Below are positions 32,222 through 63,292 of a DNA stretch of 64,000 bases, piece after piece. A model generated the notes under the pieces. It was given only the letters and a program-made list of their open reading frames with translations, was not told where the DNA came from and did not search any database. The stretch is from contig JAPPII010000067.1 of NCBI GenBank assembly GCA_028820845.1, positions 1-64,000 on the forward strand. The letters run 5' to 3'. This DNA comes from Candidatus Poribacteria bacterium (GTDB lineage Bacteria > Poribacteria > WGA-4E > WGA-3G). Position 1 is the first letter of the stretch. The number at the start of each line of letters is the position of its first letter. A program made the translations under genes and the position numbers.

Positions 32222-33433
32222 TTATTTGGGTTTGACCAACCGCACCCGCCCTGTGAGGAGTTGCTGCATCATGCCTTGTTTGATGGCGATGGTTTTGTCT
32301 CTGCGTTGCTCCAGTGCAGTGATCTCGGCATCCATATCCGAAAGGACGGCGGTGATGGCGCGTTGTTCATCTGATTTTGGAGTTTTGAATGTGAGTTCCT
32401 TTAAGAACTTGAAATGTCTATTATAACCAGTATTAGGAATATCTTTTGTTAAAAGTTGATAATAGAAAAACTTCGTCATATCATCTCTTTTCACTGCAAG
32501 CAGTTGCGTTCCATCAGCTCCAATTAAAAAGTCCACATCAACAAACTTAAATATCCTGGTGTGGTCTCCGAATACAATCACTCCATCTGCTGGACATTTA
32601 AACAGTTTTTCTGTTTGATCTGAATATCCGACAATAGCGTTTTGGCCTTGATCAATAACTGGGTGGGACCCATTAACGCTGTATTCAGAGGCTTGGATTT
32701 TATGGAAATTCCCGTTTAATCGTCTAAATAGTTCTTCAAACCGCTTTGTTTCCCATGCCCCGCTGAAGCCGGGCAAGCGCGTTTTGCCGGTGAGCAGTTG
32801 CTGCATGGTGGCTTGCTTGATGGCGCGCTTCTTGGCGATGAGTGCGTCCAATGCGTTGATTAACCCATCTACATCTGATAAGACGGCGGCGATGGCGCGT
32901 TGTTCCGAAACTTGAGGAGGACAGGGAATCTCAATTAATTTAACATCTCGGCTATTGATAGCAGGATAATTTGAGCCTGAAAGTATTTTGTCAATCTGGT
33001 CATTCACACCCTCGCTAAATAGTTGGGAAAATAGAAAATAAGGAACGGATGAGTCGTGTTTGGCGCGGAGGACAGCAAAACCCGTTGAGCAAACTGCATT
33101 CGGCACTTGACCGTGAAAAAATAGATGTGCCATAAGGTTTGGTCTAACAGTTGACATAAGAACGTCGCCATTCCGAAGTATACGTTGCGCCCTTGAAGGT
33201 GCAGTCCGAAAAACCTCTTCAGAATAACCGAGTAATTTTCCAGAATCAACTTGCTCAAGTGTGATGTAGTTGAATTCGTAGTTGGGATTCGTATTACTTG
33301 AGAAATTCTGGGGATTTACATCCGAAATCTCGCCCAACCGCTTTGTTTCCCATTTACCGCTAAATCGTTGTGAGTTCTGGGGTTCGTCAGAGGTATCAGA
33401 TGGATTTTTTACGTGTGTTTTTGTGGTGTGCAT
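32222..33433 (-). CDS. hsdS: Type I restriction enzyme specificity subunit
   Basis: DNA-recognition subunit of the type I RM complex, 403 residues. It has two target-recognition domains (about 25-165 and 215-355). Each is followed by a conserved helix: EQRAIAAVLSDVDGLINALD with MQQLLTGKTRLPGF in the middle, and EQRAITAVLSDMDAEI with MQQLLTGRVRL at the end. Both central and terminal repeats are intact, so the bipartite target should be full. The target cannot be read from sequence. Confidence 0.94.
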   Translation of the reverse strand: MHTTKTHVKNPSDTSDEPQNSQRFSGKWETKRLGEISDVNPQNFSSNTNPNYEFNYITLEQVDSGKLLGYSEEVFRTAPSRAQRILRNGDVLMSTVRPNLMAHLFFHGQVPNAVCSTGFAVLRAKHDSSVPYFLFSQLFSEGVNDQIDKILSGSNYPAINSRDVKLIEIPCPPQVSEQRAIAAVLSDVDGLINALDALIAKKRAIKQATMQQLLTGKTRLPGFSGAWETKRFEELFRRLNGNFHKIQASEYSVNGSHPVIDQGQNAIVGYSDQTEKLFKCPADGVIVFGDHTRIFKFVDVDFLIGADGTQLLAVKRDDMTKFFYYQLLTKDIPNTGYNRHFKFLKELTFKTPKSDEQRAITAVLSDMDAEITALEQRRDKTIAIKQGMMQQLLTGRVRLVKPK

Positions 33434-53022: not shown

Positions 53023-53916
53023 CTATATTACTGACTTCAGATACTGTAGATTCCGCTCGGCACTCTCATAAGGGCTGCCCATGCCGGGTAAAACATCTTG
53101 CTCGACGACGATCCAACCGTCGTAGTTCCGCTTCCGTAACTCCCCAATAAACGCTGGAAAATCGACCTCACCTTTGCCCAACTCGCAAAAAACGCCTTTA
53201 CCTACCGATTCAAAGTAGTCCCACCCTTCCTCGCGAGAACGGTTAGCAATATCGGGATGGCAATCCTTGAAATGAACGTGCCAGATCCGATCGGTGTACC
53301 GCGTAAATGCCTCAAGCGGCTCACCACCGCCGAATCGGTAATGTCCCGTATCGAAGCACAATCCGAGCAGGTTTGGGTCGGTGTGTTCCATGAGTGTGTC
53401 AATCTCTTCTGGTGTTTCTATGTATCCTGCACAGTGCGGATGCAGAACGGTTCGGAGTCCGGTTTCATCTTTCACCGTCTGAGCGATACGATGCACACCG
53501 TCCACAAAAGTATCCCACTGTTCTGACGTTAAACCGTGTTCGGGACGGATGCGCCCTGCATAGCGGATGCGCTCCGCTACAACCCCGTTTTCATCTGAAA
53601 GCACGATGAAGGGTGTTTCACCGGCGGCAGCTGCCATCAACCGAGCATGGTCGAGTGCTTTCGCTTCACCGGCTGTGTGTGTTTCTGGATCAGCGAGTGC
53701 GATGCCGACGAATCCACCTAACATTTTCAACTCGCGTTTTTCAAGTTCAGCACGAAGTTGCGCGCCATCTGTCGGCATGAATCCCCAATCGCCTAATTCG
53801 GTGCCGGTGTAGCCGATGGTGCTCATCTCGTCTAACACTTGGACGTAATCGGGTGCTTTGCCGTCTAATTCAAACTCAAGTACGCCCCAGGAGCATGGGG
53901 CATTTGCGATGTTCAT
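53023..53916 (-). CDS. Sugar phosphate isomerase/epimerase, IolE-like TIM barrel
   Basis: Xylose-isomerase-like barrel of 297 residues, resembling inosose dehydratase. Visible elements are NIANAPCSWGVLEFE at the N-terminus, VLHPHCAGYIETPEEIDTLM (about 152-171), LCFDTGHYRFGGGEP and WHVHFKDCHPD with metal ligands. The start at 53916 is four bases after the stop of the TPR gene; the frame could extend to 53973. It is the last gene of the minus-strand run 59393-53023, but by function belongs with the dehydratase and MmsA. Confidence 0.85.
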   Translation of the reverse strand: MNIANAPCSWGVLEFELDGKAPDYVQVLDEMSTIGYTGTELGDWGFMPTDGAQLRAELEKRELKMLGGFVGIALADPETHTAGEAKALDHARLMAAAAGETPFIVLSDENGVVAERIRYAGRIRPEHGLTSEQWDTFVDGVHRIAQTVKDETGLRTVLHPHCAGYIETPEEIDTLMEHTDPNLLGLCFDTGHYRFGGGEPLEAFTRYTDRIWHVHFKDCHPDIANRSREEGWDYFESVGKGVFCELGKGEVDFPAFIGELRKRNYDGWIVVEQDVLPGMGSPYESAERNLQYLKSVI

Positions 53917-53920
53917 CAAG

Positions 53921-54637
53921 TTATTGGTCCTTCTCTGCGTAAACTTTACCGCGACTGTAGTAGGCTTCGGCATAATCAGGTTTGAGTTCTATTGCCTTGG
54001 TATAATCCACGATAGCGTTGTCAAAATCAACTTTATCCCGATAAGCGTTGCCGCGATTGTAATAGGCTTCCGCGTAATCCGGTCTTATCTTTATCGCCTC
54101 ACTATAGTCATTAATGGCTTTATCATACTCACCAATGTACCTATAGGCGTTTCCACGTCTGATGTAAGTTTCCACCATCCTTGGATTTAGTATTAAGCCT
54201 ATCGTGTAAAGTTTAATCCTTTCCTCAGCATCCTTCTCATTTTTAATTAGGTCCCGAGGATGACCGCCGTTAAGTTCCTGACAGTGCCAAGTAAACCTGA
54301 TGAACCCATCAATGCCAAGTTTCTCAACAAGGATTTGATTTCCAATTTCAAAAACCTCAAGATCCGCCATTTTTTTGATTTCGCTTTGAGGTGCAGCGAA
54401 TCTTTCAGCACGTGCGCGTTCTTCTGCTTCTCTTGCCGCGCGACTCTCTTGGATCCGCTTGACGATAGTGTCAATATCTTCATCATCTAACCACTTATGT
54501 CGGTCAACGGAATAATCACCTGTGCCGGGTTGACACTGCCGAATGAAGCGTGGCACTTCAGAGGCACCGAGTTTATCGGTGAGGATCTTAAATCCCATCT
54601 CATAAAGTTCACTATCTGTCATCTCTAAGACGTTCAC
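53921..54637 (-). CDS. Putative PIN-partner (antitoxin-like) protein fused to TPR repeats
   Basis: A 238-residue protein starting VNVLEMTDSELYEMG from GTG at 54637. Residues about 5-80 hold the motif MTDxELYExGxxILTxKLG with RFIRQC, then DYSVDRHKWLDDEDIDTIV. A second copy, MADLEVFEIGNQILVEKLG, follows at about 90. Residues about 160-236 are TPR repeats. The same N-terminal domain stands after the second PIN gene at 58463. It overlaps the PIN gene by 26 bases, as toxin-antitoxin pairs do. Antitoxin function is inference. Confidence 0.6.
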   Translation of the reverse strand: MNVLEMTDSELYEMGFKILTDKLGASEVPRFIRQCQPGTGDYSVDRHKWLDDEDIDTIVKRIQESRAAREAEERARAERFAAPQSEIKKMADLEVFEIGNQILVEKLGIDGFIRFTWHCQELNGGHPRDLIKNEKDAEERIKLYTIGLILNPRMVETYIRRGNAYRYIGEYDKAINDYSEAIKIRPDYAEAYYNRGNAYRDKVDFDNAIVDYTKAIELKPDYAEAYYSRGKVYAEKDQ

Positions 54638-55100
54638 TTCTTGGTACCTCCTGGAACCACACATAAGGATTTTCGACCCGAACGCGAAGGAACGAGTTAT
54701 TACGTTTCGCTCCTCTGAGTAGTCTATCATCTGTTGTAAGAAAAATATCTACAGAACCACTCTCAGCACAAGCAAGATGCAAAGCATCCAACTCCTTAAA
54801 CCCTAATACTTCAAGTTGTTTACCCCTTGATATTTCGCTGATTCCAAGCGGAATAGTCTGGTGCACTTGGGTTAGCCGATTTTTGCTTTGCATACGTTGG
54901 TTTAAATCTCGGATTTGCTCTATTTCATCTACCAAAACATCGCTGGAGACCCAGTACCAATGTCCGATACGAAATTGCGTAAGAATCCAGCTAATCACTT
55001 CGGTTTCTTGGCGAATTCGAGTTTGTGTCTGGTCATCGAAAAGCCGACTCAGACAACATGTATCAAGATAAATTTTCCAGAACTGCAAATCGGTCTGCAC
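54612..55100 (-). CDS. PIN-domain protein (VapC-like)
   Basis: A predicted ribonuclease of 162 residues. The PIN acidic residues are seen in IYLDTCCLSRLFD (Asp13), DALHLACAE (Asp near 104) and TTDDRLL (about 122-128). The start is GTG at 55100. It is paired with the antitoxin-like TPR gene downstream. It is a paralogue of the PIN protein at 58932, and a 79-base stretch around its start is almost identical to the corresponding stretch there. Confidence 0.8.
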   Translation of the reverse strand: MQTDLQFWKIYLDTCCLSRLFDDQTQTRIRQETEVISWILTQFRIGHWYWVSSDVLVDEIEQIRDLNQRMQSKNRLTQVHQTIPLGISEISRGKQLEVLGFKELDALHLACAESGSVDIFLTTDDRLLRGAKRNNSFLRVRVENPYVWFQEVPRSERLRDDR

Positions 55101-55113
55101 ACGTATAACCAGA
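55035..55113. repeat. 79-base direct repeat, copy 1
   Basis: From ATCGAAAAGCCGACT to ACGTATA-CCAGA this stretch matches 59328-59406 with two differences. It covers the first codons of the PIN gene and 13 bases upstream. Confidence 0.85.
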
Positions 55114-55123
55114 TTCCTGTCTT

Positions 55124-55951
55124 CTACGACTCACTCTCTTTGATGACCTGTTTAAGATCATCAATGAAATGTTCAAAGAGTTTGACTTTGCCGTTTTCTG
55201 CAAATGGCTTGGCTGTTAGAACGTATGTACTATCGATCTCCGTTTCAATAATGGCTCGATGGTGGATATGTGGTAAATCCATACTTTTTAAGGTCTTGTC
55301 TATATCGGTTGTGATGAGATAGTATTTGATGGCAGCACTATTTTCATTTGTCTGAAGTTTGAGTTTCCAATAAGCTATATCAAAAATTTGTCTTTCTACA
55401 TTAACCTTGCAGACGATTAGAGCGATGATGCGCGAGTTTCGGGGAGAATAAACAACGAGATCAATATGCGGAAGATAAGCATCAGATTCCCTATAGTCAA
55501 TTGCCAAATTCCGTTTTACACCTTCCAATTCTTCGGATAAGGTAGAGCTATTCCGCAAATCATAGCATAAAACCGCTTTCAACCCCAAGTTCTCAATTGG
55601 TTCGGTGATCGTATCTCGGATCCGTTCTTGAAAAGTGGTGCCCTCAGAAGCACTCCAAGTTTCCCCAAGTTCTCCGGTCAAAGAAGCCTCAAGACTTTCA
55701 ATAGCAACAGCACTTTCAAGATCACCCCATAAAGCGGATTCTCCATAGTACTCTTCAAGTTGGTATATGACATGCTTCGTATAGTCAACGAGGTCAAAGT
55801 CAATAATATTTCTTTCTATGAGTACGTCTACCAACGTGTTATCATAACCCATCTCGTAAAGCGCATCCGTAAGGATGTTTTTCACGCCACTAAGCGGTCT
55901 ATCATACCTCGCTGTTGGGGCTGCGTTGATAGGTTCAGTTGTATTATTCAC
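55124..55951 (-). CDS. BsaWI-like PD-(D/E)XK endonuclease candidate
   Basis: A 275-residue protein. The segment YLPHIDLVVYSPRNSRIIAL (about 159-178) is followed by IVCKVNVERQ and AYWKLKLQTNENSAAIKYYL, which reads like the active-site region of type II enzymes of the BsaWI group, where the usual E of ExK is replaced (here Cys-Lys). The N-terminal 100 residues are helical. No methyltransferase gene is adjacent. The GTG start follows GAGGAATTTATACG, 22 bases after the DUF262 gene. Family assignment needs a profile search. Confidence 0.55.
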   Translation of the reverse strand: MNNTTEPINAAPTARYDRPLSGVKNILTDALYEMGYDNTLVDVLIERNIIDFDLVDYTKHVIYQLEEYYGESALWGDLESAVAIESLEASLTGELGETWSASEGTTFQERIRDTITEPIENLGLKAVLCYDLRNSSTLSEELEGVKRNLAIDYRESDAYLPHIDLVVYSPRNSRIIALIVCKVNVERQIFDIAYWKLKLQTNENSAAIKYYLITTDIDKTLKSMDLPHIHHRAIIETEIDSTYVLTAKPFAENGKVKLFEHFIDDLKQVIKESES

Positions 55952-55973
55952 CGTATAAATTCCTCAATTTACG

Positions 55974-57746
55974 TTATAAGGATTGATAGTAGTCCCGTAT
56001 CTTAGCCACTATAAGTTTTCTACGCTCCTCCAGAAACTCATCGTAATTTTCAAAAATTGCCGTGTCTGTCCCGCTGAAGGGAATACAATGCGCATTGAAA
56101 TTAGCACTCAAATCTTCGAGGTTGTCTATACCACCATAGCGAGATTCACCCTCTCCACATGCTGTTTGCAGCTCTGAAAAATACGTTGCGGGGGCAGTAT
56201 CACCAATTGAACGATTAATTTCCTCTTGGGTCACTACAAGATTAGCAAGTTGATTGTATTTACTGTCAGCAACATCTATCCTCTGAAGGTGATTCTTCGG
56301 AAATATATGGTGAATGTCTCTCTGGCCCGCAAAAAGGTCTCGGACTGTAATATCGCGAGATAGAAAACCTTTGTCATTTACTTTAATTTGGCTTGCGAGG
56401 AATAAATTAAAATAAACATTTTTAAAGCCTGATAGGTTCAGGTTCTGCCTAAACTCCTCATTCCAAAAAGCGTCTGAAAGTCCAGCTCGTTCCAGTCCTG
56501 CAAGATACACCTCTGCTCCACCTTCAGCGTTCATACCTCGAACATCCTCACCCAAAGTGGCTTGTGGTTCACCACTATATCTACCTGTAAGGACTGACAT
56601 CACAAACCACCTACGGACTAATCTTTCAATTCGCCCAGAATCCATATTCTTGGTACGTAACGTCAAAAATAGGATGTACGCAGAATTGACAGCGTTTCTC
56701 GACGTAAGCATTGAGGCATCTGTAAATCCTGCTGATCGCAATATCGCTATAAAACGTTTGAAATTAGTCTCATTTATGTATGCCCGTATACTGTTCTTAA
56801 GTCGCTGAAATGTATTTTCTGCCGAGCCGTCCGAGAGCGAGTCTACTAAATTGTTTAAGTCCGCACGTTTGAACTCATACGTGAAAACCACCCGAAGCAT
56901 ATCCGTGTAAGCGGGTACATAGATATTATCACTCCAATCTTTTAGCCATTCCAGTGCGTGAAAATAATCACTACTAGCAAAAATAGAATTAGCATCAACT
57001 AATTGCTCATAAGCAGTTGGAACAGTCGCTAGATGACAAAAATAATCAATGGATTGGCGCAGGAGGTGTCCGCTATATTGTTCACTTGCAGCCATTTTCG
57101 ACATAATAAAATCCGCAGCATTTAATTTCACACCTGTCCCATTAATGCGTCGAAAAATTTCTGCAACAGTTCCTAAATTCAGGTCCACATTGAGATCAAT
57201 AACACCGAGAGAATTATTCCGAATCTCATAAAGCCTTCCTATACGTTCTCCCATTTCATATCGATCAACCTCATCGTTTCTCTCACAGTACTCATCAACC
57301 AATCGAAGCAAACCCGAATTAGAGTTAAAAACAGTAGATATGTCAGAAATCCATTCTGGGTCGTTACGGATAGCATTAGTCGTCACCGCGAACGCTTCCT
57401 TATCAGGATGAAAGGCTATTTGAATTCGCTGGGTTCTATATTTTTTTGTTAGGATCTCTTTCCCTAACAAAGCTGCCCGAAGTGCCATCATCCGTTGCTG
57501 ACCATCAATCAAAACACGTTCACGGATTGATGATTCACCCCCTCGGAGGGAAATATCTGATTTGGGCCACGTAATCAGATATCCGACAGGATAACCATGG
57601 TAAAGGGAATCAATAAAATTACGGACTTTGTTTGCAGACCAGACGAAAGGTCTCTGGATTTCGGGGATAACTATATCCTCAGTCTTAATCCAATTCAATA
57701 ATGTATCAACAGTATATTGGTGTAACGAGTAACAAGAGTTTGACAT
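55974..57746 (-). CDS. DUF262 and DUF1524 domain protein (GmrSD-like)
   Basis: A 590-residue protein with the GmrSD arrangement. The N-terminal DUF262 domain shows IPEIQRPFVWSANKVRNFID (about 26-45) and VLIDGQQRMMALRAALL (about 78-94), the ParB-like nucleotide-using site. The C-terminal DUF1524 HNH nuclease shows DIHHIFPKNHLQR near residue 475 and NLVVTQEEINRSIGD. Relatives include type IV restriction enzymes acting on modified DNA, and SspE. The ribosome site is GGAAAGTGA. Defence role is inference from family. Confidence 0.85.
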   Translation of the reverse strand: MSNSCYSLHQYTVDTLLNWIKTEDIVIPEIQRPFVWSANKVRNFIDSLYHGYPVGYLITWPKSDISLRGGESSIRERVLIDGQQRMMALRAALLGKEILTKKYRTQRIQIAFHPDKEAFAVTTNAIRNDPEWISDISTVFNSNSGLLRLVDEYCERNDEVDRYEMGERIGRLYEIRNNSLGVIDLNVDLNLGTVAEIFRRINGTGVKLNAADFIMSKMAASEQYSGHLLRQSIDYFCHLATVPTAYEQLVDANSIFASSDYFHALEWLKDWSDNIYVPAYTDMLRVVFTYEFKRADLNNLVDSLSDGSAENTFQRLKNSIRAYINETNFKRFIAILRSAGFTDASMLTSRNAVNSAYILFLTLRTKNMDSGRIERLVRRWFVMSVLTGRYSGEPQATLGEDVRGMNAEGGAEVYLAGLERAGLSDAFWNEEFRQNLNLSGFKNVYFNLFLASQIKVNDKGFLSRDITVRDLFAGQRDIHHIFPKNHLQRIDVADSKYNQLANLVVTQEEINRSIGDTAPATYFSELQTACGEGESRYGGIDNLEDLSANFNAHCIPFSGTDTAIFENYDEFLEERRKLIVAKIRDYYQSL

Positions 57747-57796
57747 TCACTTTCCTTTACGAGTTAAAATTATGTATAGACGTTTCGGCTCAAAAG

Positions 57797-58444
57797 TTAG
57801 CACTTGTTATAATCTTGAACAGCCAGTTCAAATTCGCCCAGGTGAGAGTAAGTTCGGGCGCGTTTCGCATAAACCTTTGTAAACGTCGGAATGAGCTCTA
57901 CAGCTTTATTGAAGTCTTCAAGGGCCCTGTCATATTCGCCTTTTTTCAGGTAGACAGTACCGCGATCGAAGTAAACCTCGGCATAATCGGGTCGGAGTTC
58001 TACTTCCATGCTATATCCCTCAATGGCTTTGTCATATTCACCTTTTTCACGATAAAGATCCGCGCGATAACCGTGCGCGTCGGCATGTTCAGAGTCAAAC
58101 TTTATAGCCATGCCAAAGTCTGTAATAGCTTTGTTACGCGCATCGTACTCTGTGTAAACTTTACCGCGACTGTAGTAGGCTTCAGCATAATCAGGTTTGA
58201 TCTCTATTGCTTTGGTATAATCTACGATGGCTTTCTCAAAATCAAGTTCATCACAATAAGCATTGCCGCGATTGTGGTAGGCTTCAAAATGATCAGGATC
58301 GCGCTTTATGGTCTCACTAAACGCTGCGATGGCTCTGTCGTATTCGCATTTTTTGTAGTAAGCCATGCCAAGATTGTAATATGTTTTGGCATCATTGGGC
58401 TTGTGTGTTATTATTTTTTTGCATTCCGGCACTGGTAAATCCAA
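57797..58444 (-). CDS. TPR repeat protein
   Basis: A 215-residue protein made of about six tetratricopeptide repeats (pattern A-x-x-x-x-N-x-G-x-A-Y with DYxKAIEIKPDYAEAYYSRG). The repeat stretch 58186-58300 is very similar in DNA to the TPR part of the gene at 53921, where it is fused to the antitoxin-like domain. Here it is separate, 18 bases after the antitoxin-like gene. Its TTG start has no clear ribosome site, so fission of a formerly fused gene is possible. Confidence 0.8.
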   Translation of the reverse strand: MDLPVPECKKIITHKPNDAKTYYNLGMAYYKKCEYDRAIAAFSETIKRDPDHFEAYHNRGNAYCDELDFEKAIVDYTKAIEIKPDYAEAYYSRGKVYTEYDARNKAITDFGMAIKFDSEHADAHGYRADLYREKGEYDKAIEGYSMEVELRPDYAEVYFDRGTVYLKKGEYDRALEDFNKAVELIPTFTKVYAKRARTYSHLGEFELAVQDYNKC

Positions 58445-58462
58445 CTTACATGGGTGCTCTTG

Positions 58463-58930
58463 TTAATCCTGTGTTTCGGCTGCGGGTATCCGCTTTGGAG
58501 GTATCACATTCAGGTTGTTATCGGGTACCGGCGGTTGATCGGCGGGTTGAACATCGCTGAGGCGTTTGAAATGCTGTTGGAAAAATCTGACATATCCATA
58601 GGCATCAAATTTGTCTATAAGAATTTTAAGCCCAACCTCGTAGATTTCGATATCGGTGAGTTCTAATAAGCCCTTACGCCACTTAGCAACCCTCTCGGCT
58701 TTGATACGTTCTTCTTTCTTTTCTTCTGCTTCTCTCTGCCGGATACGCGCAACAATCGTGTCAATATCTGGTTCATCGTCTAACCACTTATGCCGCTCAA
58801 CAGAATAATCATACTCGTTCGGTTTACACTGACGGAGGAACTGATCTGTATGCGCAGATCCTAATTGTGCCGTTAGCTCTGCAATAGCCGCTTCGTAAAT
58901 CTCAAGATCCGTCATCTCTAAAACGTTCAT
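58463..58930 (-). CDS. Putative PIN-partner (antitoxin-like) protein
   Basis: A 155-residue protein with the same duplicated motif as the gene at 53921: MTDLEIYEAAIAELTAQLG with QFLRQC and DYSVERHKWLDD, then LTDIEIYEVGLKILIDKFD. A charged helix rich in Glu, Lys and Arg joins the two. The C-terminus is proline-rich. The ATG at 58930 lies one base after the PIN gene stop with GAGGTGG upstream. The pairing suggests an antitoxin or regulator of the PIN protein. Confidence 0.6.
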   Translation of the reverse strand: MNVLEMTDLEIYEAAIAELTAQLGSAHTDQFLRQCKPNEYDYSVERHKWLDDEPDIDTIVARIRQREAEEKKEERIKAERVAKWRKGLLELTDIEIYEVGLKILIDKFDAYGYVRFFQQHFKRLSDVQPADQPPVPDNNLNVIPPKRIPAAETQD

Positions 58931-58931
58931 C

Positions 58932-59393
58932 TTAATCCACCTCTTGTAACCATGTATACGGGTTTTCAACTCGGACGTGAAGTTGTGTATAATAGCGTTG
59001 TGCTCTTCTGAGTAACCTGTCATCAGTTGTTAGAAAAATATCCACCTTGTCACTCTCAGCACATGCAATATGCAAAGCATCTCTACGCTTGAATCCTAGT
59101 AACTCAAGTTGTTTGCCTCTTAATTTTTCGTTTGCCTGAGTGTAAATCGTCTTATGCGCACGAGTTAGCAGACCTTTCATTTCAAGGCGTTTTCTCAGAT
59201 CCGGAGTTTGATTAACCTCATTTGTCAAAACATCGCTGGAGATCCAAACCCAATCACCTCTACGAATATAAGTGAGGGTCCGCCCTATAGCCCCAGCTTC
59301 TTGAATAATCCGTTCCTGCGTAGGCGGATCGAAAAGCCGACTGAGACAACATGTATCAAGATAAATTTTCCAGAACTGCAAATCGGTCTGCAC
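58932..59393 (-). CDS. PIN-domain protein (VapC-like)
   Basis: A 153-residue predicted ribonuclease paralogous to the PIN protein at 54612. The conserved residues are in IYLDTCCLSRLFD, DALHIACAE and TTDDRLL. The start is GTG at 59393, and the promoter at 59465-59494 lies just upstream. It is the first gene of the 59393-53921 cluster. Confidence 0.8.
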   Translation of the reverse strand: MQTDLQFWKIYLDTCCLSRLFDPPTQERIIQEAGAIGRTLTYIRRGDWVWISSDVLTNEVNQTPDLRKRLEMKGLLTRAHKTIYTQANEKLRGKQLELLGFKRRDALHIACAESDKVDIFLTTDDRLLRRAQRYYTQLHVRVENPYTWLQEVD

Positions 59394-59406
59394 ACGTATA
59401 TCCAGA
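59328..59406. repeat. 79-base direct repeat, copy 2
   Basis: The second copy of the repeat at 55035-55113, in the same orientation and 4.29 kb away. Two of 79 positions differ. Confidence 0.85.
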
Positions 59407-59464: not shown

Positions 59465-59494
59465 ATTATAGCATAACACCTGTCCAAATATCAA
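59465..59494 (-). promoter_or_regulatory. Promoter of the PIN/DUF262 cluster
   Basis: On the minus strand TTGATA (59489-59494), an 18-base spacer and TATAAT (59465-59470), with TTATGC before the -10. The -10 region is the same as in the hsdM promoter. Confidence 0.7.
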
Positions 59495-60178: not shown

Positions 60179-60234
60179 ACGGTCAGCGGTCAGAAGAGGT
60201 TAATGAGGTTTAATAAAATAATTCGATAATTGAC

Positions 60235-60296
60235 GGGCAATGAATTGCCCTACTACAAACAGGAGACTGGTTCGTAGTAACGCGATTTATCGCACG
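60235..60296. repeat. Composite palindrome, swapped order
   Basis: GGGCAATGAATTGCCCTACT (60235-60254) is followed by TTCGTAGTAACGCGATTTAT and CGCACG (60271-60296). The same two hairpins as at 31188-31251 occur here in the opposite order. Confidence 0.6.
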
Positions 60297-60357
60297 TTAA
60301 GAAATTACCTGATTAAATTCCTAAACTTTATCAAACCTCGCCTACTATGGTTGGAGA

Positions 60358-61845
60358 CTATGCCCAGCGTTCAACAACGACCTTCTTTTGGGTGAAGAAG
60401 TCTACGGCATCCCAACTCTGACCGTGGAGGTCGCCGAAGAAACTGTCTTTCCAGCCGCTGAAGGGGAAGAATGCCATCGGGGCAGCGACACCGATGTTAA
60501 TGCCGATGTTTCCGATCTCTGCCTCATAACGGAACTTGCGGGCGGATGCGCCGCTACTTGTAAAGAGACATGCCATATTCCCGTAACGTCCATCGTTGAC
60601 GAGTGCGATCGCATCGTCAATCGTCTCAACGTGGATAAGTCCGAGAACAGGTCCGAAGATTTCAGTGCCGGCAATATCGCCCTTCGGATCGAGGTTACTG
60701 AGAACCGTTGGACGGATGAAGTTTCCATTTTCGCCCCCGGGGATACTCGGATACCTACCATCAACAAGAAGCCGCGCACCTTCATCAGCACCCGCTTGAA
60801 TCAACCCCTCAATTCGGGTCTTGCTTTCGGTGGTGATGACGGGTCCCATCTCGGTTCCGTCTTCCAATCCGTTCCCGACGACGCGGTCAGTGGCGGTGTC
60901 AGCGATGGCTTCTGTGAACCAACCCTGTGCGTCACCAACGGTGAAGGCAAGGGAGGCGGCAAGACAGCGCTGCCCAGCACACCCAAACGCACTCTCCGTC
61001 GCGGCGTTAACCGTGAATTGCGGATCGGCATCGGGAAGAATGATGAGCGGATTTTTCGCACCGCCTTGGCACTGGACGCGCTTTCCGTTTGCCGCGGCTT
61101 TCGCATAGATGGCTTTCGCCGTTGCGGTCGCACCGACGAAACTAACCGCACGAACATCGGGATGCGTTAAGATAGCATCTACAGTGTCCCTACCGCCATT
61201 GACCAGATTAACAACGCCTTTCGGGAGTCCCGTCTGCTCCAAGAGTTGGAACACCTTTTGCATGGTGACGGGTACTTTCTCAGAGGGTTTGACGATGTAG
61301 GTATTCCCACAAGCGATGGCATACGGTAGAAACCAGAAGGTAATCATCCCCGGAAAGTTGAAAGGTGCGATGGCAGCACAAACCCCGACAGGTTGGCGGA
61401 TCATGAATTCATCAATGCCGGTTGCGATGTCCTCAAGATTCGTGCCTTGCATGAGCGTGGGGATACCACAGGCGACCTCGACGTTCTCAATGGCGCGCCG
61501 CATTTCGCCTTTTGCCTCATCAAGCGTTTTGCCACACTCAAGCGTAATGGTTCTCGCGATGTCGTCTAAGTTGTCCTCTAAGAGATTTTTCAACTTGAAC
61601 AAATATTGAACACGTTCGACGGGGGGTGTCCGCCGCCAGTCTTGGAGTGCAGTGGCAGCAGCAGTGGCGGCTTCATGGACCTCTTCAGCCTGCGAAAGCG
61701 GGACTTGTGTGAGGACTTCCCCATTCGCTGGATTCGTAACGTCCAGTAATTCATCTGTCGTGGACTGCTGCCATCTGTTGTCAACGTAGTTCAGCAGTGG
61801 CGTTTGGACATCGGATAAGGCTTGCGGCGGATTGGCTTCAGGCAT
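60358..61845 (-). CDS. mmsA: Methylmalonate-semialdehyde dehydrogenase (CoA-acylating)
   Basis: Aldehyde dehydrogenase family, 495 residues. It converts (methyl)malonate semialdehyde to propionyl- or acetyl-CoA in valine or inositol breakdown. The catalytic site is [12 protein letters not shown] (Cys near 290), and [14 protein letters not shown] precedes it. [20 protein letters not shown] near residue 165 is typical of MmsA/IolA. The start at 61845 has AAAGGAGAAAAC upstream. It follows the protease gene by 19 bases. The IolE-like protein at 53023 would fit an inositol pathway. Confidence 0.92.
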
Positions 61846-61864
61846 GGGGTTTTCTCCTTTAGTT

Positions 61865-63292
61865 CTACTTTGCGAAAAGTTCAAGGACTTTTAATTGCTC
61901 CATAGCAGCGACGATTTGTGGGTCATGTTCCAGTTCGTCCTGAGAGGTTTCCGTAATCTGTGCCAGCGCGTATTTAATGCCGACATCGCTCAGCACAATC
62001 TGCTCCTCAACGAGTGCATCCGACAGACGTTGGTAACTCCGTCGGAGTTTTGCTGCCTGTCTATCATCACGGGAGGCATGAAAGGCAACATTGAGTTGGC
62101 TCAAGACATCATCGCCGTTTTCCTCTACAAAGGTTTTGAGTTTTTCGTGATTACGGAGTTTCACATGCATCTGCTGCTCGGAACGACTAAACCATGGGGA
62201 TTCAACATCGGGCATGATGCCGATTTTGTCAATATCGACACCGTTGGGTGTATAGTAGCGTGCGACGGTTAATTTGACGGCAGCCTTTGTACCTCTCAGC
62301 GGAAACACACGCTGGACAGATGCTTTCCCGAATGTCTTAGCACCCATGACGAGTCCGCGCCCATGGTCCTTGATGGCACCCGCGACGATTTCTGAGGCAC
62401 TTGCACTCCCGCCATTAACGAGGACAATTAATGGAAATTCCTCCCTTTTCTCACCTTTCGCCACAAAATCCTCACGCGTCTCAACCCCTTTACTGTAAAC
62501 AACGAGTTGACCGGGCCTCAGAAAATCACTGGCGATATCAACAGCTGAAGAGAGTAACCCACCCGGGTTCAGACGGAGATCGAGAACAACGCCTCGGATA
62601 CCCTGTTCCTTGAAATCAACAAATGCTTTATCTACGTCATAAGCCGTGGTCTGAAGGAATTGATTGATTTTGATGTAACCAACCTTATCACCAATAATGT
62701 CTGTTTCCACGCTCGGAATCCGGATCACCTCACGCGTGACGGTAACCTCAATGGGTACCCCCTCGTTTTCACGGATGATTGTGATAGAAACCGGTGTTCC
62801 GGGTTCACCCCGTAACTGCTCAACAGCCTCGTTCAAGGACATGAGTGCCGTCGATTCACCCTCAATATGGCTGATGACATCGCCGTTTTGGACACCCGCG
62901 AGTGCTGCCGGGCGATCCTTAAAAGGGGTAATCACAGTGAGCATATCCTCCCGCATACCGATCGTCATGCCGAGTCCGCCGTAATTGCCGCGGTTGTCGG
63001 TCTGAAATTTGGTATAGTCTGGAATAAATTGGCTGTACGGGTCCAACTTGCGAAGCATGCCGTTGATGGCACCCTCCATGAGTTCTTTGGTGTCCGGGGT
63101 GTCGAGATGCGACTGTTGGACATACGCCAATATCTGTGAGAAAAGTGCAAGGTTTTCGACGAGTTTCTCGTCTTCATCTGAGCTCCAACCGAGTGGCAGC
63201 ATGGCACAGATAAGGTATATAGATAACAAGATGCGAAAACAGTTTTTTGTCGTAGCTTGTGGGTTTTGAAAAGGTATTATCAAATGTTTCAT
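61865..63292 (-). CDS. C-terminal processing peptidase, S41 family
   Basis: A 475-residue exported protease. A signal segment (about 18-37) is followed by a helical region, a PDZ domain (about 100-185) and the S41 core. The catalytic Ser is in [15 protein letters not shown] (near 292) and the Lys in [11 protein letters not shown] (near 317). It resembles CtpA/Prc. The ATG at 63292 has GGAGG nine bases upstream. It shares direction with mmsA, with a 19-base gap. Confidence 0.93.

What the first reader, a model, noticed from the sequence alone, without database searches (positions are those of the whole stretch)
55035..59406. 79-base near-identical direct repeats inside two otherwise diverged PIN genes
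55035-55113 and 59328-59406 differ at 2 of 79 bases and extend 13 bases into non-coding DNA, while the rest of the two PIN genes is much more diverged. Recombination between them would excise or duplicate the 4.3 kb with the DUF262 and nuclease genes. This suggests gene conversion or a cassette junction.
Basis: seen in the sequence. Interest (0 to 1): 0.7.

Follow-up and report, generated by a model that had tools for sequence, protein, structure and literature searches.

The report
Recombination scar joining two toxin-like genes
Two neighbouring, otherwise dissimilar toxin-like genes in a sponge-associated Poribacteria genome share an almost identical first 79 bases, and relatives show the same seam elsewhere: the start of this gene stays put while its body, its partner gene and nearby defence genes are swapped by recombination.

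Summary
In detail: 55035-55113 and 59328-59406 match at 77 of 79 bases (57 in an unbroken run), covering 13 untranslated bases and codons 1-22 of two PIN genes whose remainder is 65% identical. Among 60 within-genome paralogue pairs examined, the next best 5' identity is 83.5%.

The window is Candidatus Poribacteria DNA. The repeat lies in a genus-wide defence hot spot between an aldehyde dehydrogenase gene and an iolE-like gene. Content varies among about 25 genomes: PIN pairs, DUF262 + BsaWI-like nuclease, methylase + HNH, FRG, one complete CBASS; two sites are nearly empty.

Each PIN gene is followed by a small partner gene, a likely antitoxin. At an unrelated locus (12 sequences analysed), three discrete PIN-body + partner alleles reassort against conserved flanks, with the left seam at the same PIN 5' segment (AU tests p<1e-4 to 1e-74). 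The window pair is therefore best read as two body alleles carrying one 5' anchor and standing in tandem, PIN-A now fused directly behind the nuclease gene.

Recombination is well supported. Single crossover, duplication with deletion, or later gene conversion are not told apart. Excision is possible but not shown. No recombinase was found.

The parts
55035..55113 (-). 5' segment (anchor) of PIN-A: 13 nt untranslated + codons 1-22
   Evidence: 77/79 identical to 59328-59406; closer to PIN-B (97%) than to the PIN-A orthologue in G023 (91%)
59328..59406 (-). 5' segment (anchor) of PIN-B
   Evidence: 98.7% identical to the PIN-B allele of the same-species genome G060
54612..55100 (-). PIN-A gene, PIN-domain nuclease, candidate toxin
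   Evidence: Pfam PF01850 28.7 bits, above cut-off; body 85% to G023, 65% to PIN-B
58932..59393 (-). PIN-B gene, PIN-domain nuclease, candidate toxin
   Evidence: Pfam PF01850 23.5 bits against a cut-off of 23.6; body 97.7% to G060
53921..54637 (-). partner gene A (small domain) fused to a truncated TPR tail; overlaps the end of PIN-A
   Evidence: ORF and sequence, TPR by Pfam, 86-89% to G023
58463..58933 (-). partner gene B, candidate antitoxin; overlaps the end of PIN-B
   Evidence: homologues follow PIN genes on cyanobacterial, deltaproteobacterial and clostridial plasmids; covaries with the PIN middle
57797..58444 (-). TPR-B protein
   Evidence: Pfam TPR
55974..57746 (-). DUF262 / GmrSD_N protein (cargo)
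   Evidence: Pfam PF03235 E=2e-28; PADLOC HEC-05 E=9e-30
55124..55951 (-). BsaWI-like restriction endonuclease (cargo)
   Evidence: Pfam PF18643 E=3e-18; adjoins the iolE-like gene directly in G004, G006, G007, G010, G014, G016 and others
55114..55123 (-). 10-nt junction between the nuclease stop codon and the PIN-A 5' segment
   Evidence: direct reading
53917..53934 (-). right junction: TPR-A runs into ACCAATAACTTGATG, resembling the nuclease-gene end that precedes the iolE-like gene elsewhere (probable remnant)
   Evidence: junction comparison; a short match
59465..59494 (-). promoter-like site upstream of PIN-B only (11/12, extended -10)
   Evidence: consensus match only, overall number not above shuffles
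53023..53973 (-). iolE-like gene, fixed flank of the hot spot
   Evidence: NCBIfam myo_inos_iolE E=7e-62, below its curated cut-off; one copy in nearly all genomes of the genus
60358..61884 (-). aldehyde dehydrogenase (MMSDH family) gene, fixed flank of the hot spot
   Evidence: TIGR01722 535.9 bits, above cut-off; 37 of 38 genomes

Best explanation
The repeat is a homologous-recombination seam. In this Poribacteria genus the 5' end of a PIN gene (about -13 to codon 22) acts as a shared anchor, while the PIN body, its overlapping partner gene (likely antitoxin) and neighbouring defence genes are exchanged as blocks. In the window two different body alleles, PIN-A and PIN-B, carry the same anchor and stand in tandem in a defence hot spot. 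A unit PIN-B - partner - TPR - DUF262 - BsaWI-like nuclease now lies in front of PIN-A, whose own promoter region is gone. Shown: the repeat, its mosaic match, the hot spot, and allele reassortment at a second locus with the same left seam. Inferred: RecA-type homologous recombination, the toxin-antitoxin role of PIN + partner, selection for keeping PIN body and partner together, and the order of events. A crossover between the copies would remove 4293 bp and leave an intact PIN-A gene behind the PIN-B promoter (in-frame product read); whether it happens is unknown.
For: 77/79 identity against a 65% body; only pair of 60 within-genome PIN pairs above 84% in this segment. PIN-A segment matches PIN-B at 6/7 informative sites, body matches the G023 orthologue at 94/112, breakpoint between nt 63 and 67, permutation p=6e-4. 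Same-species genome G060: aldehyde dehydrogenase 96-98% identical, spacer gene about 70%, then PIN-B segment and body 98-99%, then different cargo (HNH gene). Second locus: flanks and 5' segment 85-97%, sharp drop to about 67% after +60 to +80 through PIN body and partner, then recovery; three body alleles conflict with the flank tree, AU p=7e-5, 2e-36 and 7e-75. PIN middle and partner covary (r=0.66) more than 5' segment and partner (r=0.35). Nuclease gene adjoins the iolE-like gene in other genomes but PIN-A lies between them here.
Against: The 5' segment encodes a conserved catalytic motif, so part of its similarity is selection; synonymous identity across the family is only slightly raised there (0.59 against 0.52-0.54), which limits but does not remove this. 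The triple test rests on 7 informative sites. Other tandem PIN pairs in the genus do not share near-identical segments (71-84%), so homogenisation is not general. PIN carboxy-terminal segments are also mosaic, so the 5' seam is not the only one. No reads were examined.
Confidence: 0.76

Rival explanations
1. No recombination between the copies: the 5' segment is held nearly identical by selection on the protein motif and on a regulatory or translational signal in the DNA.
For: YLDTC motif and acidic residues are invariant; 5' segments are the best-conserved DNA across paralogues and genomes; synonymous identity slightly raised over codons 2-22 (0.59 against 0.52-0.54).
Against: 59 other within-genome pairs under the same constraint reach at most 83.5%; synonymous codons 20/21 against 38/73; mosaic matching at informative sites.
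Confidence: 0.1
2. Gene conversion after the tandem pair had formed: PIN-B overwrote only the 5' end of a resident PIN-A, or the reverse.
For: Short tract with abrupt edges; PIN-A segment is PIN-B-like.
Against: The upstream edge at -13 coincides with the junction to the nuclease gene, as expected if crossover and junction were one event; no other tandem pair shows it. It differs from the best explanation only in the order of events.
Confidence: 0.35
3. Tandem duplication of a whole unit, followed by deletion of DUF262 + nuclease from the second unit and replacement of the first PIN/partner by allele B.
For: The right junction resembles the 3' end of the nuclease gene (ACCAATAAC..ATG), as if a second nuclease copy had been deleted; G023 keeps PIN-A with a nuclease remnant of 96 bp before the iolE-like gene.
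Against: The remnant is about 14 bases and similar strings precede the gene in relatives without the nuclease; needs more steps.
Confidence: 0.35
4. A mobile cassette moved by a site-specific recombinase, with the 79 bp as attachment site or target duplication.
For: Direct repeats bracket a 4.3-kb block; orphan 5' segments occur in G025, G030 and G011.
Against: No recombinase or integrase gene in the window block, and none recognised among the longer hot-spot ORFs, apart from transposase-like ORFs (my own reading) in G006, G008 and G018; the segment is coding sequence; no hit in viral contigs. Orphan segments can equally be truncated genes.
Confidence: 0.07
5. Assembly error: a chimeric join at a repeat shared by two alleles of a mixed population.
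For: The genome is a draft of 125 contigs and the two alleles are present in related genomes; junctions lie in a repeat.
Against: The contig is 121 kb with conserved synteny on both sides; the unique 10-nt nuclease junction at the repeat edge needs real DNA on at least one side; the second-locus pattern is independent of this contig.
Confidence: 0.1

Closest known systems
Core-gene-flanked defence hot spots (Pseudomonas aeruginosa cDHS1/2, PMC10250203; E. coli hot spots, PMC10121019)
   Same: Two conserved genes bracket a variable set of defence genes; rapid turnover between close relatives; homologous recombination through conserved flanks was proposed there for cDHS1.
   Different: Here a conserved gene start inside the island also behaves as a recombination seam, and the unit exchanged includes a PIN gene with its partner.
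VapBC / PIN-domain toxin-antitoxin pairs (surveyed in PMC2701414)
   Same: PIN nuclease gene with a small overlapping partner gene, patchy distribution, many paralogues.
   Different: PIN gene comes first; the partner matches no known antitoxin family in Pfam or NCBIfam; toxicity untested.
Polymorphic toxin systems (PMC3482391)
   Same: One constant end and a variable toxic part swapped by recombination together with the immunity or antitoxin gene.
   Different: Those keep a long amino-terminal trafficking part and swap a carboxy-terminal toxin domain; here a 22-codon start that is part of the PIN fold is constant.

Membership tests
Recombination (conversion or crossover) tract between paralogues | Abrupt tract of identity far above the rest of the gene | tested here: met
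Recombination (conversion or crossover) tract between paralogues | Tract groups with a different parent than the body | tested here: met
   p=6e-4, only 7 informative sites in the tract
Recombination (conversion or crossover) tract between paralogues | Both configurations or products seen in reads or strains | not testable with these tools
   no reads held
Core-gene-flanked defence hot spot | Same two flanking genes across genomes | tested here: met
Core-gene-flanked defence hot spot | Variable content with recognised defence genes, and empty sites | tested here: met
   GmrSD_N, restriction enzymes and methylases, complete CBASS in G027, near-empty G022 and G025:C133
VapBC-type toxin-antitoxin | PIN domain | tested here: met
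   PIN-A above the Pfam cut-off, PIN-B 0.1 bit below; conserved acidic residues D13, E59, D105, D124
VapBC-type toxin-antitoxin | Overlapping small partner gene conserved as a pair | tested here: met
VapBC-type toxin-antitoxin | Partner with a known antitoxin or DNA-binding domain | tested here: not met
   no significant Pfam or NCBIfam match
VapBC-type toxin-antitoxin | Growth inhibition by PIN and neutralisation by the partner | not testable with these tools
   needs expression in a laboratory strain
Site-specific recombination cassette | Recombinase gene in or beside the cassette | tested here: not met
   none recognised among the block's ORFs

The most novel reading that the evidence does not exclude
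The start of this PIN gene is a standing recombination anchor: toxin bodies and their matching antitoxins circulate among Poribacteria species as a small set of long-lived alleles, kept by balancing selection, and the same anchor brings defence cargo in and out of chromosomal hot spots.
Probability: 0.35. Interest if true: 0.7.

Novelty: new variant of a known kind. Interest (0 to 1): 0.52.

Why it matters
Defence genes turn over quickly in bacteria, often with no mobile element in sight. This locus offers a concrete, testable way it can happen: a conserved gene start supplies the homology, and everything downstream, a toxin body, its partner and adjoining defence genes, can be exchanged without any recombinase. 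The three reassorting alleles at the second locus would let one ask directly whether toxin-antitoxin specificity is under long-term balancing selection in uncultured symbionts.

Tried and rejected
Genus-wide synonymous constraint on the 5' segment: only slightly raised. Genus-wide homogenisation of tandem pairs: not seen, 71-84% in four other tandem pairs. A scan of best triples for breakpoints piled up near both gene ends, which an end-effect of the statistic could also give, so it is not used as evidence. AlphaFold models of PIN-B and its partner were of low confidence (mean pLDDT 64 and 62) and the structure search gave no significant match, the best being VapC proteins at E=0.1. No homologue in viral contigs; no solved structure by sequence. 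Paper searches found no description of this pattern, but the library lacks most subscription journals.

Full report
Observation. They match at 77 of 79 bases with a 57-base unbroken run, and identity falls away sharply on both sides. On the - strand each copy is 13 untranslated bases plus codons 1-22 of a PIN gene. The remaining gene is 65% identical. Shuffling of aligned sites never gave such a run (0/20,000), and the excess holds for synonymous codons alone, 20/21 against 38/73. Among 60 within-genome PIN pairs examined in the genus the next best 5' segment is 83.5%.

Setting. The genome belongs to Candidatus Poribacteria by its nearest relatives. On the - strand the order is aldehyde dehydrogenase, (a small divergent gene), PIN-B, partner B, TPR-B, DUF262/GmrSD_N, BsaWI-like nuclease, PIN-A, partner A with TPR tail, iolE-like gene. 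The two outer genes occur in nearly all of 38 genomes of the genus, and in about 25 of them on one contig. What lies between varies: PIN pairs, FRG-TPR proteins, methylase + HNH nuclease, HsdR-like proteins, DUF262 + BsaWI-like nuclease, and in G027 a complete CBASS (cyclase, E1-E2, JAB, SAVED-endonuclease). Two sites, G022 and G025:C133, are nearly empty. This is a defence hot spot.

Junctions. In other genomes with the nuclease of this type it usually adjoins the iolE-like gene within a few bases; in the window PIN-A and its partner lie between them. PIN-A begins 10 nt after the nuclease stop codon at its -13, and lacks the upstream region that PIN-B and most other copies keep, including a promoter-like site at 59465-59494. 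At the other end the TPR tail runs into ACCAATAACTTGATG, which resembles the end of the nuclease gene next to the iolE-like gene in relatives; the match is short.

Mosaic. The PIN-A body, partner A and the iolE-like gene are closest to G023 (85-89%), but the PIN-A 5' segment is closest to PIN-B (97%) and to the PIN-B allele of the same-species genome G060 (96%), against 91% to G023. At sites where PIN-B and the G023 orthologue differ, PIN-A follows PIN-B at 6/7 in the segment and G023 at 94/112 in the body, breakpoint between nt 63 and 67, p=6e-4. G060 itself is mosaic: aldehyde dehydrogenase 96-98%, spacer gene about 70%, PIN-B 98-99%, partner 94%, then an HNH gene instead of DUF262 + nuclease.

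The same seam elsewhere. Three other pairs from different genomes had 5' segments of 96-99% with bodies of 65-70%. They sit at one chromosomal site with conserved flanks. Across it, identity is 82-96% up to the PIN 5' segment, drops to about 67% after +60 to +80 through the PIN body and partner, and recovers beyond. Three discrete body + partner alleles (I: L098, L108, L102; II: L111, L126, L146; III: L124, L109, L118, L119, L122) are shared across genomes whose flanks group differently. Twelve sequences give strongly conflicting trees; holding allele groups together on flank data is rejected at p=7e-5 and 2e-36, and the flank group on body data at p=7e-75. So exchange with a left seam at the PIN 5' segment has happened more than once.

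Function. PIN-A passes the Pfam PIN cut-off, PIN-B falls 0.1 bit short, and the acidic residues are invariant. The overlapping partner has homologues directly behind PIN genes in Cyanobacteria, a deltaproteobacterium and Butyrivibrio. PIN middle and partner covary (r=0.66) more than 5' segment and partner (0.35). A toxin-antitoxin pair with the PIN gene first is the likeliest reading; it is not tested, and the partner has no recognised antitoxin domain. If PIN body and partner must match, recombinants that cut between them would be lost and those that cut in the gene start would survive; this is inference and would explain the seam.

How the tandem arose is open. A single crossover bringing the PIN-B to nuclease unit in front of PIN-A, a tandem duplication with later loss, and later gene conversion all fit. 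A crossover between the copies today would delete 4293 bp and leave an intact PIN-A reading frame, a single-PIN arrangement like that of G023 and G031, but no excised form was observed. No recombinase gene was found in the block. Assembly error is not excluded without reads.

Literature. Core-gene-flanked defence hot spots are known, and transfer through conserved flanks was proposed for P. aeruginosa (PMC10250203; also PMC10121019 for E. coli). Sponge symbionts including Poribacteria are rich in restriction and toxin-antitoxin genes (PMC5649159). I found no report of a PIN gene start as a recurring seam, within a library that lacks most subscription journals.

Noticed in passing
60200-60335: A dispersed repeat of about 130 bp: 53 matches in the own genome and dozens in G012 and G060; the high identity of G060 to the window ends at its edge (60333).
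   Followed up: partly
L167 (G027:C83:81000-100300): A complete type II-like CBASS (cyclase, E1-E2, JAB, SAVED-endonuclease) sits in the same hot spot, read in the opposite direction.
   Followed up: partly
L085 1700-2060 (G023): Between a nuclease-gene remnant and the iolE-like gene lies a fragment of a partner-like gene flanked by two copies of about 29 bp of the iolE-like gene start, another seam at a gene start.
   Followed up: no
L069 4982-5068, L070 9559-9645, L129 2931-3017: Orphan PIN 5' segments (codons 1-29 only) a little upstream of a partner gene, without a PIN body.
   Followed up: partly
32250-32368 and 32787-32905: A 119-bp direct repeat at 73% identity, 537 bp apart, outside this locus.
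   Followed up: no
L235 (Planktothrix agardhii plasmid AP017993.1): The PIN + partner pair lies between the specificity gene and the HsdR gene of a type I restriction operon.
   Followed up: no
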